Below, one piece after another: positions 32,221 to 37,183 of a stretch of 64,000 bases of DNA; position 1 is the stretch's first letter; every line of letters starts with the position of its first letter. Both the position numbers and the translations under genes were made by a program. This DNA comes from Telopea speciosissima (lineage: Eukaryota > Streptophyta > Magnoliopsida > Proteales > Proteaceae), in contig NC_057926.1 of assembly GCF_018873765.1 (NCBI RefSeq), positions 55,441,378 to 55,505,377 of the forward strand. Direction: 5' to 3'. Under the pieces are notes generated by a model. That model ran no database searches. It was not told where the DNA came from and saw only the letters and a list, made by a program, of their open reading frames with translations.

Positions 32221-32837
32221 CTGGGTTGAAGCTTCGTCAGCTGGGCGTGTTTGAGTTGGTGATATTTTTGTTGTTTGCGGCGGAGAGATTGTCTGGGTGT
32301 AATAGGCGAAACAACTGCCGCCACCATTATTGCGTCCCCAGTCCTTCACTCCATTTGTTAAACCAATTTTTTTTTCACAAATTCTCAAACAGTTTCCCTT
32401 CCCTAGTTCCCCGTCTCTTTTGCTTCTTTCTTTAATTGTTTTGGCCTTCCCTAGTGGACGCCGTTACCCACTTCGAAGCGGAAGGACCTCGCACAATCGA
32501 GCTGAATCACCATTACAATATTATATAGGTTTGAGAGAAACAACAAAACAAGCTCATTCATCTCCAGCTCTAGATCTGCTTGATACACTCATACACTGCT
32601 GGGTTAGAATCTCTGTATTTACTGATTCTGATGCGACTCGTGTCTAACAGCCCCACCCTTAGAATTTAAAAACAGTTACCTTTTGCCTGATCTTCTCAGT
32701 CGTCAATGGAATGGAAAGGTCAAAACAGCTGGTGCGGGGGTCAGTTGTTTGAACTCTTTATTTTATTTGAATTTGTCATCACGATCCAAAGGACTAGGAG
32801 TCTAGGAGGCTGCAGCTTCACCGACCAAAAAGAAATG
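32221..32837. other. 5' flank of the epimerase gene
   Basis: The 5' UTR and promoter of the minus-strand epimerase should lie here. No distinct TATA box is seen. The right edge is the target duplication of the Pack-MULE. Confidence 0.5.
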
Positions 32838-33205
32838 GGGTTTTTGTCAAATGCCCATTTGTCCAAATGCCCCTTACAACTTTTTTAATTGTAATCTTCC
32901 TTTCCTTTCAAAACAATGTAGCATTTAGTCCAATCCGTTAGTCTGAGACGTTATGTTCAAACGTCTGGACTTTTTTGACCATTTTACCCTTAATAGGGTA
33001 GAATGACCAACTTACCCTCTCTAACACTCAACCTTGCAACTCATCTTCCAAACCCTAACTATCTCCACCGTAATCCATGGCCGAAACCCAATTGTCTGCA
33101 CCACCGCTGCCAAGGGTTTCAGGGATCATCTACCCAACATCTCCACCGTAATCCATGGCTGAAAGAAACCCACCACCAAATTTAATTTTTTTCAAAGAAA
33201 GAAGG

Positions 33206-33620
33206 GAATTGGTTCCATGAACAAAAAGCTTCTGAAAGCAAAGGTGGAAGAACTGCCTTTATTTGACAAAGCCAACTTTCTCATATGATCTCAAATGGAT
33301 TCGAAATTTTAAAGGGAAGGAATCACCTCACAGATCTATGAAATCTGCCAGATCACAACCCAAAACAGCAACCAGAATTAAATAAAAAAAATTACTGAAG
33401 TTAGAACAGGCGGAAAACAGAACCAACAATGGTTTTTAACTCTGCAACCCACAGCAGAAGGGTCTGTCCGGTATGATACGTTGATGTTTGAATCACATAT
33501 GGAAACCCTACCCTCGACCAAAATCTTATACCAGATTATTCAGTTACGGTGGAGATCGAACAGAATAGTTTTTAAGAATAACTAAAAGTAAAGAGGGGTT
33601 TTCAACTCTGCAACTCACAG
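33206..33620. other. Unassigned segment of the Pack-MULE
   Basis: This segment is not terminal repeat and has no recognised coding content. A motif AACTCTGCAACYCACAG occurs twice (about 33440 and 33604), each time looking like an intron end. It could hold more chloride-channel intron or a third capture. Confidence 0.4.
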
Positions 33621-33908
33621 AATTGTTGGTGACCTATTACAGCCAGGGGTAACGAGTACGAGTGGTGGTAACGGTGCCGAGAGCCTGGACTATGAAGTTA
33701 TCGAGAATTACGCCTACAAGGAAGAACAGGTTGAGTTTCCAGGCTTCCTAGAATGTGTGTGTTGACAACTTTTACTAAGTTGCGAAATTTTTGCGTTATT
33801 ATTCTGATTTTTGTCTGGTATTTGAGATCTCATAGGCACACAGGAGAAACCTTTTAGGAGGATATTATGTGGTCCTGAAATGGTTCCTTGCGTTGCTGAT
33901 CGGTATCG
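33621..33908 (+). pseudogene. Captured fragment of a CLC-d-like chloride channel gene (two exons and intron)
   Basis: After an acceptor CTCACAG, exon 33621-33729 reads ...SLDYEVIENYAYKEEQ and ends at a GT donor. After a second acceptor, exon 33836-33908 reads AHRRNLLGGYYVVLKWFLAL and LIGIG up to GTAAGG. I recognise this as the N-terminal part of plant CLC-d (SLDYEVIENYAYREEQ, GYYVAVKWFFSLLIGIG), which includes the start of the first membrane helix. The intron between the exons is retained, so the capture was of DNA, not cDNA. Both exon frames are still open. It is a fragment inside a transposon and cannot make a channel. Confidence 0.85.
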
Positions 33909-34055
33909 GTAAGGATTCGCCAATATCTGTGGTCGTTGTGTTATTATGATTTTAATTTGAGTTTTCCTGTGTCCTTTTTGTACCTCTTGCTTAGATTTGG
34001 TGGTGGGTTTCTTCCAGCCATGGATTACGGTGGAGATTTTGGTGGTGGGTTTCTC

Positions 34056-34575
34056 GTTATTCTTTAGTTTTTCAGCCCATGTCTCTAACAGATCCCTTCG
34101 GGATCCTCCTTTGCGATTTGTCCAACAACAGGGGATTCATGACCATCTGATTTTGACTGAGCACAGACAGCGCAGAATATCTCCTCCATTATTGCAGTTC
34201 CATCATCACCCCTTGCCTTGACATGAATGGCAACTTCTGTTCCTACAGCTTCTTTTGATCATTTTTTAATGACTTCAAGCAGAGAGACCTTCTTCTAGCT
34301 ACATAAGCTAAGAAATGGATCTGCTTCTTCATGAAAACCATAATTGTCTCCGGGAATACATAACCAACCAACCAAATCTTCAGTGCTGAGGATTTCAGGT
34401 ACCTTAGATCCTCAAAAGCTGGAGGTGTTGCGACTGCTATAACATCGGTGGAGCCCCATCGATCAGTTTTATGTTCCTTTCAGTGAGAATAAAAAGTTTT
34501 CAGCCTTTTGCTGAAATTTTCAAGATTGATGGTGTATGCACTTGCTGCTACAGAAGTTTTTCCATTTGCAGCCAT
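34056..34575 (-). pseudogene. Captured fragment of SPT16 (FACT histone chaperone) N-terminus
   Basis: From an ATG at 34575 the minus strand reads MAANGKTSVAASAYTINLEN, then ATPPAFEDLRYLKSSALKIW, ETIMVFMKKQIHFL, SPVVGQIAKEDPEG and ETWAEKLKN near 34060. This is the aminopeptidase-like N-terminal domain of plant SPT16, about the first 170 residues. The reading frame has at least two in-frame stops (one in place of the conserved Trp after FYSH) and small indels, so it makes no full domain. It lies in opposite orientation to the chloride-channel fragment in the same element. Confidence 0.88.
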
Positions 34576-35010
34576 GGTGTTTACATTCTGATGATCTCCC
34601 ATTTATATATTCTACAATGACCAAAAGCGAATGGATAGCAGTGATCAACAGACTGTTAGACTTTTGAAAGAAATTAGATTTGGTGGAGGGTTTCTTCCGG
34701 CCATGGATTACGGTGGAGATAGCTAGGGTTTGGAAGATGAGTTGCAGTGTCGAGGGTTAGAGAGGGCAAGTTGGTCATTCTACCTTATGAAGGGCAAAAT
34801 GGTCAAAAAAGTTCAGACGTTTGAACATAACGTCCCAGACTAACGGATTGGATCAAAATGCTACATTGATTTGAAAGTAGGGGGAGTTTACAATTAGAAA
34901 AGTTGTAAGGGGGCATTTGGACAAATGGGTATTTTCAGGGGGGCATTTGATAAAAACCCAAAGAAATGGGTCCAACTTGTTAATTCCTTTTGGCTGCGGG
35001 CCCTCATGCG

Positions 35011-35164
35011 GATCCAAATCCTCTACAGCCGAGCTGCCCGGTAGGACCGTGCTGCCCAGACACGATGTTGCACGCAACGTCCGCCTTACCCCTGCCCAAA
35101 CGCATTACACCATGTCTGGGCAGCACGGTCTTGCCAGGCAGCTCGATAGTAGAGGATCCAAATT
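35011..35164. mobile_element. Foldback MITE with 10-bp target duplication
   Basis: Arms of about 55 bp: left AATCCTCTACAGCCGAGCTG and ACCGTGCTGCCCAGACA, right the complement with a few changes. The loop holds GTCCGCCTTACCCCTGCCC. Direct repeats GCCCTCATGC at 35001-35010 and 35165-35174 are perfect. The long duplication suggests a Mutator-type origin. The loop resembles that of the hairpin at 1819-1984. Confidence 0.75.
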
Positions 35165-35705: not shown

Positions 35706-37183
35706 GAGTAAAGTATACATACCCCCTAGAATGCACCTAATATTTCTCGTACCCCCTAAGCGGCTTAATATTCTGCGTACCACCCCTCAATATTCCATGT
35801 ACCACCCCTGTTTTACACCCCAAATGCCAGATAGATCCAATCCGTTAAATACCACCGTTAAATGCCAAAATTTTGACCATTTTACCCTTTGCTCTATTTT
35901 CTTAAATCTAAAAAGACTTAATTACCCTCATTTATTTGTTACCCTAAACTAATTGAAAATGACCATTTTACCCTTTGTTTTTATTTTTATAAATGAAAAG
36001 ACCTAATTGCTCTCATTTATGTATTACCCTAACTTAATTTGAAAAGACTATTTTACCTCTAAATATTTGTTCCTAAAAACCCCAAAATGCCCTCATCCTC
36101 CCCAAATCATCATCTTCTTTTACATACCCACCACCACCACCGCCACTGCCACCCACCATTAAAGAAAATAGATAGTCTTTTCGAGCGAGGGAACTCACTC
36201 CACAAGAGTTTGATCGACTTGTGATTTTAGGGGGAGGTCTCAAACTGGAAGATCTATGGACTCCACATAACAAGTGCCCCAAACAGCAAGTGGAGAGAGG
36301 GTTCAAAGTCTGAAATCAAACCCAACAGAGGATATGGAACCAACCTTTATTACTGGCTTTGATCTCAAAACCCCACTTTTTGTTTCGATCTGAAACTCAG
36401 CAAGGTAAGTCGCTCCTCTGTTTGTGAACACTCCTCCAAATCTGAAGCTGAATGGTCCAAGGATGAGGGACATTTCAACTATCTTCCCTTTTCTCAGATT
36501 ACCACCCAAAATAGGAGATAGAGTGATCCACTTCAAAGAATGATTGCAGCAGAAATCCAAGGAAAAAAACAAGAACGAAACAGAAAGGAAAGGATGGTAA
36601 TCAAACCCGAGGAGAACTAGGAATGAATCGAGCAGGGAAAGTGAGAAAAAGAGAAATGCAGAGCGTAATCACGGTTCGGATTCAAACTTGTTCCAACCGA
36701 CTGTTATTTTTAATGGTGGTGATGGTGTTAATGGTGGGTGGCGGTGGTGGTGGTGGTGGTGGTGGGTATGTAAAAGAAGATGATTTGGGGAAAACGAGGA
36801 CATTTTGGGGTTTTTAGGAACAAATATTTAGGGGTAAAATAGTCTTTTCAAATTAGGTTAGGGTAATACATAAATGAGGGTAATTAGGTCTTTTCATTTA
36901 TAAAAATAAAATAAAGGGTAAAATGATCATTTTCAATTAGTTTAGGGTAACAAATAAGTGAGGGTAATTAAGTCTTTTTAGATTTAAGAAAATGGAGCAA
37001 AGGGTAAAATGGTCAAAATTTTGGCATGTATGGTATTTAACGGATTGGACCTATCTGGCATTTGCGGTGTAAAGCAGGGGTGGTACATGGAATATTGAGA
37101 GGTCATACGCAGAATATTGAATCGCTTAGGGGGATACGAGGAATATTGGGTACTTTCTAGAGGGGTACATGTACTTTACCCTC
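35706..37183. mobile_element. Long-TIR DNA transposon (Mutator-like), possibly a Pack-MULE
   Basis: Arms of about 450 bp face each other (35706-36160 and 36715-37183): both contain GAGGGTAAAGTA-type ends, CAATATTCC, GACCATTTTACCC, TTACCCTCATTTAT and a CCACCACCACC/GGTGGTGGT tract. ATTATAA flanks both sides (35699-35705, 37184-37190), only 7 bp, so the duplication may have decayed. The 550-bp centre has a minus-strand open frame, 36572-36303 (89 codons, KWITLSPILGGNLRKGKIVE), that I cannot identify; it may be a captured host piece. Confidence 0.75.

What the first reader, a model, noticed from the sequence alone, without database searches (positions are those of the whole stretch)
32838..34959. 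Pack-MULE that captured two unrelated host genes in opposite orientations
A TIR element with a perfect 9-bp duplication (AAAGAAATG) carries a CLC-d-like chloride-channel piece (plus, two exons and their intron) and an SPT16 N-terminal piece (minus). The seen facts are the ends, the duplication and the protein similarity. That plants have CLC-d and SPT16 families is established. Two captures in one element, one with its intron, imply at least two DNA-level acquisition events. The epimerase gene's 5' end is only about 600 bp away, so the element could also influence its promoter.
Basis: partly seen in the sequence, partly recalled or inferred. Interest (0 to 1): 0.85.

Follow-up and report, generated by a model that had tools for sequence, protein, structure and literature searches.

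The report
Transposon carrying three plant gene fragments
A small plant jumping-gene element has picked up decayed pieces of at least three unrelated host genes; it is a clear, well-preserved example of a type of element that is already well known.

Summary
Window 32838-34959 is a non-autonomous long-TIR element with a perfect 9-bp duplication. Its ends recur in this 823-Mb plant genome (41 TIR places, a lower bound); 6 of 11 elements with both ends called, this one included, have perfect 9-bp duplications. The plus-strand piece matches a CLC gene on contig C1 (94%): part of exon 1, all of intron 1, exon 2, part of intron 2. The minus-strand piece is the 5' end of an SPT16 gene on C2 (93%). 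The SPT16 piece is dead (3 stops, 2 frameshifting indels). Both large captures have equal private divergence (17/596 and 10/341 sites), so one template-switching episode is possible. One copy was found and no intermediate; expression and effect on the neighbouring enolase-superfamily gene are untested. It is a new member of a known kind: multi-gene Pack-MULEs are in print.

The parts
32829..32837 (.). left 9-bp target site duplication AAAGAAATG
32838..33208 (+). left TIR (about 371 bp, with an inner 26-bp direct duplication)
   Evidence: relatives L007, L026, L035 align to element position 371
33209..33236 (.). short stretch shared, among matches found, only with two relatives (L057, L058)
33237..33596 (.). 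internal part of a dispersed repeat, best copy C4:51700611 (94% over about 334 bp)
33597..33620 (.). second copy of 24 bp of the same repeat
33614..33649 (+). 36 bp of a squalene epoxidase exon, donor-like C4:13323766-13323801 (34/36)
33650..33729 (+). CLC exon 1, 3' part
33730..33835 (+). CLC intron 1, complete, GT..AG
33836..33908 (+). CLC exon 2
33909..33992 (+). 5' part of CLC intron 2
33991..34054 (.). fragment of the inner end of the element's own TIR, with a 17-bp repeat of it
34055..34059 (.). 5 bp that match neither neighbouring template (filler, by eye)
34060..34660 (-). SPT16 5' end (start codon at 34602, N-lobe, 58 bp upstream), donor-like C2:78644469-78645067
34663..34959 (-). right TIR
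34960..34968 (.). right 9-bp target site duplication AAAGAAATG

Best explanation
A non-autonomous Mutator-like element (Pack-MULE), moved in trans by a transposase not identified here. Shown: its ends, its duplication, its family, and a mosaic interior whose pieces trace to separate loci. Inferred: a break inside an earlier element was repaired by a polymerase that switched templates in turn. It copied a dispersed repeat, a squalene epoxidase exon, a CLC gene, the element's own TIR edge and SPT16, and ended in the right TIR. The SPT16 piece, at least, has since decayed as pseudogene sequence. Any output would be TIR-driven chimeric or antisense RNA, or siRNA; that is not shown.
For: 9-bp duplication and matching ends. 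TIR family with 41 places, 40 of 1141 candidates scored. Perfect 9-bp duplications in 6 of 11 elements with both ends called, this one included. Donor-like loci 93-94% identical, none with a TIR match in the 1.5 kb held on each side. CLC intron kept. Junctions show 2-4 bp of shared bases, a blunt join, a 5-bp filler and a TIR fragment (read by eye). Relatives carry other gene pieces: PPR and UDP-glycosyltransferase. No Pfam transposase match in the 12 element ORFs scanned. SPT16 changes look unconstrained.
Against: No transposase with these TIRs was found: of the 150 PF10551 matches scored (826 candidates), the nearest to any of 43 TIR places is 181 kb away. The longest TIR pair, 16 kb on C11, was read for 9.9 kb and gave only a weak reverse-transcriptase-type Pfam hit in the 4 ORFs scanned. 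No empty site was available. 5 of 11 elements lack a perfect duplication as called, among them the two relatives with Pfam-supported gene pieces (L026 at 7/9, C5:13.10 Mb none).
Confidence: 0.93

Rival explanations
1. The captures were built in place: a plain MULE inserted here first, and a later break inside it was filled from other loci, so the filled element has never transposed.
For: The captured interior was found once, with no intermediate (6 of 6 candidates scored in each). Animal single-copy Pack-TIRs are attributed mostly to such gap filling (PMC8277862, abstract and passages).
Against: Nothing seen here excludes it; the 9-bp duplication fits either order.
Confidence: 0.45
2. Two separate Pack-MULEs, one with CLC and one with SPT16, fused; the TIR fragment between the captures is the scar of the lost inner ends.
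For: A 64-bp piece of the inner TIR edge lies exactly between the two captures. Elements with extra internal TIRs are known (PMC3310237, passages).
Against: Only the inner edge of a TIR is present, with no outer tip. No single-capture element was found among the 6 places and the 6, each count including this element (TIR check).
Confidence: 0.2
3. The chimera is a working gene: the squalene epoxidase and CLC pieces join in frame across an intact intron.
For: The spliced frame of 62 codons is open, with both donors' reading frames and GT..AG kept.
Against: No in-frame ATG upstream in the stop-to-stop frame. The SPT16 piece is broken by stops and indels. There is no expression data. An in-frame join has a 1-in-3 chance.
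Confidence: 0.03

Closest known systems
Pack-MULEs of rice, lotus and other plants
   Same: long TIRs, about 9-bp duplication, no transposase found, host-gene fragments; fragments from several genes in one element are reported (PMC9168764 and PMC3544724, passages citing earlier work). Rice has over 3,000, some expressed as chimeric transcripts (PMC13317346, passage). [quoted passage not shown]
   Different: the particular donors (CLC, SPT16, squalene epoxidase) and host; the two large captures are not GC-rich (0.41 against window 0.39)
MULEs with extra internal TIRs (tomato, Arabidopsis, maize, rice)
   Same: TIR sequence inside the element (PMC3310237, passages)
   Different: here only a 64-bp inner-edge fragment sits at a capture junction, not a whole TIR
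Animal Pack-TIRs formed by gap filling or FoSTeST
   Same: template-switch-like junctions with short microhomology; single copy (PMC8277862, abstract and passages)
   Different: plant MULE with several donors in one element

Membership tests
Mutator-like element (MULE) | long terminal inverted repeats | tested here: met
   about 240 bp at 90%, homology to about 300-370 bp
Mutator-like element (MULE) | target site duplication of about 9 bp | tested here: met
   9/9 here; 9/9 in 5 of 10 relatives with both ends called, one of them poly-T; two at 8/9, one at 8/9 only after a one-base shift, one at 7/9, one without a match. PMC9168764 passage gives 7-12 bp for MULEs
Mutator-like element (MULE) | mobilised by a MURA-type transposase | tested here: inconclusive
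   PF10551 matches are abundant (150 of 826 candidates scored) but the nearest to any of 43 TIR places is 181 kb away
Pack-MULE | interior holds host-gene fragments with identifiable parents | tested here: met
   C2 SPT16, C1 CLC, C4 squalene epoxidase
Pack-MULE | no transposase inside | tested here: met
   longest stop-to-stop frame in the element 140 aa; 12 element ORFs scanned with Pfam, none matching a transposase; the other listed ORFs were not scanned
Pack-MULE | empty site at orthologous position | not testable with these tools
   no relative's genome held; left flank single-copy

The most novel reading that the evidence does not exclude
The element is a readable record of one serial template-switching repair that used the element's own TIR edge as a landing pad between captures. 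Its two opposed fragments make antisense or small RNAs that act in trans on the CLC and SPT16 parents, and the in-frame squalene epoxidase-CLC exon is transcribed.
Probability: 0.08. Interest if true: 0.5.

Novelty: new member of a known kind. Interest (0 to 1): 0.3.

Why it matters
It is a clean multi-donor Pack-MULE from what is probably Telopea (Proteaceae). Junction sequences and donor-like loci are in one assembly, so the capture mechanism can be read base by base. It adds a case to a known process rather than a new process.

Tried and rejected
Paralogous empty site: the left flank has one match, itself; right-flank matches other than itself cover only a foldback repeat (40 of 1427 candidates scored). 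Autonomous partner: the 16-kb TIR pair on C11 was read for 9.9 kb; ORFs of 130 aa or more were listed, and 4 of them scanned gave one weak RT_RNaseH_2 hit below its cut-off (3.6e-05) and no MULE transposase. Nested insertion as the origin of the dispersed repeat: rejected, because homology between other copies continues past both ends of the piece held here. RRS1 hit to the left piece (E=0.17): treated as chance. C2:78.47 Mb CLC copy as donor: less likely, 92.6% against 94.4%; C1 and C2 share 4 derived bases that the element lacks, against 1 shared by the element and C1 and none by the element and C2, so the capture seems older than the C1/C2 split. Literature: 'Pack-MULE' with 'SPT16' gave 0 papers, with 'Proteaceae' 1; three primary papers looked up by id are not held, and the original rice Pack-MULE paper was not looked up. 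Passages of PMC8903248 and PMC2773423 were seen and add nothing against.

Full report
The window lies in an 822.9-Mb assembly with 1287 contigs; eleven of the contigs named in the outputs, C1-C11, run from 57 to 88 Mb. A table in PMC13080361 (passage) gives Telopea speciosissima as 823 Mb in 11 scaffolds, so that species is likely but not proven.

The element is real. AAAGAAATG flanks 32838-34959 exactly. At that spacing 4 of 61,840 window positions show a 9/9 match; three of the four are this site, since the repeat runs two bases (GG) into the tip, and one is elsewhere. The duplication also falls at tips that match in 18 of 19 bases. The tips and inner TIR sequence recur in the genome: 41 places, with 40 of 1141 candidates scored, so a lower bound; one element can account for two places. 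Eleven distinct elements had both ends called (L012 was dropped because its left end was not found, and L014 is the same element as L028). Six have perfect 9-bp duplications: this one, L010, L024, L027, L030 (poly-T, weak) and L057. Two are 8/9 (C9:732 kb and C5:12.88 Mb). L028 is 8/9 only after a one-base shift, L026 is 7/9, and C5:13.10 Mb does not match as called.

The interior is a mosaic. From left to right: a piece of a dispersed repeat (33237-33596, best copy 94%), with 24 bp of it repeated; 36 bp at 34/36 of an exon on C4 whose peptide matches squalene monooxygenase (E=3.2e-10); 343 bp of a CLC gene on C1 at 94%; 64 bp from the inner edge of the element's own TIR; 5 bp of filler; and 601 bp of SPT16 from C2 at 93%, reversed. 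The first 83 bases's query, which span the join of TIR-adjacent sequence and repeat, are 98% identical in two other elements (L057, L058) that then diverge. I infer that this join is older than the rest; exchange between elements would also explain it.

Donors. The C2 SPT16 locus is open over the 679 codons held, with three Pfam domains typical of SPT16; its 3' end was not read. The C1 CLC locus has exon 1 with a start codon and four PF00654 matches downstream on the same strand. The spliced donor peptide matches CLC-a entries weakly (E=0.0026). That it is CLC-d rather than another CLC is recalled. The retained intron (33730-33835) shows that CLC was copied from DNA.

Age and decay. Polarised against a paralogue, the SPT16 piece has 17 private changes in 596 sites (4 further differences could not be polarised); 15 are nonsynonymous and 2 synonymous. 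It also has three stops, a 5-base insertion and a 1-base deletion. All possible single changes in these codons stand at about 3.6 nonsynonymous to 1 synonymous. The CLC piece has 10 private changes in 341 sites, with 4 unpolarised. Both are 2.9%, so one episode is compatible with the data, although the counts are small.

Mechanism. By eye, the joins show 4 shared bases (repeat to squalene epoxidase), none (squalene epoxidase to CLC), 2 (CLC to TIR fragment), and a 5-base filler (TIR fragment to SPT16). This fits template switching during gap repair, the model described for animal Pack-TIRs (PMC8277862, abstract and passages). It is an inference; no chance control was run for the joins, and chance sharing of 2 bases is common.

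Relatives carry other sequences: PPR (E=2.7e-15, L026) and UDP-glycosyltransferase (1.6e-10, C5:13.10 Mb) fragments in 2 of 7 relatives' ORFs scanned. I gave one ORF each from 7 of the 10 relatives with both ends called. Against this, those two relatives are the ones with the poorest duplications. A third (L057) looks like a wall-associated kinase to me from memory, but had no Pfam match. The family is thus probably a Pack-MULE family. Its transposase was not found: the nearest of 150 scored PF10551 matches is 181 kb from any of 43 TIR places.

Known or new. Pack-MULEs with fragments of several genes are in print (PMC9168764 and PMC3544724, passages). The finding is a new member of that kind.

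Noticed in passing
window 35706-37183 (approximate): A second long-inverted-repeat element just downstream: arms within 35752-36158 and 36735-37133, 83-95% complementary in pieces, with outer tips GAGTAAAGTA / GAGGGTAAAGTA and ATTATAA on both sides by eye; its tips differ from those of the element reported.
   Followed up: partly
window 35018-35157: Foldback repeat (51-bp arms, 84% complementary) with many copies in the genome (133 matches including itself, 40 of 1427 candidates scored), directly beside the element.
   Followed up: no
   Followed up: partly
L043, L045 (C2:78470987-78484522): A CLC copy whose exon 1 is split by about 13 kb with TGAAG on both sides and TG..CA ends, as a retrotransposon insertion would leave (by eye); no PF00654 match was listed nearby. 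It lies about 160-174 kb from the SPT16 donor on the same contig.
   Followed up: partly
L059 (C11:30266700-30276600): Retrotransposon-like ORFs inside a 16-kb pair of the same TIRs (reverse transcriptase by eye; weak RT_RNaseH_2 hit).
   Followed up: partly
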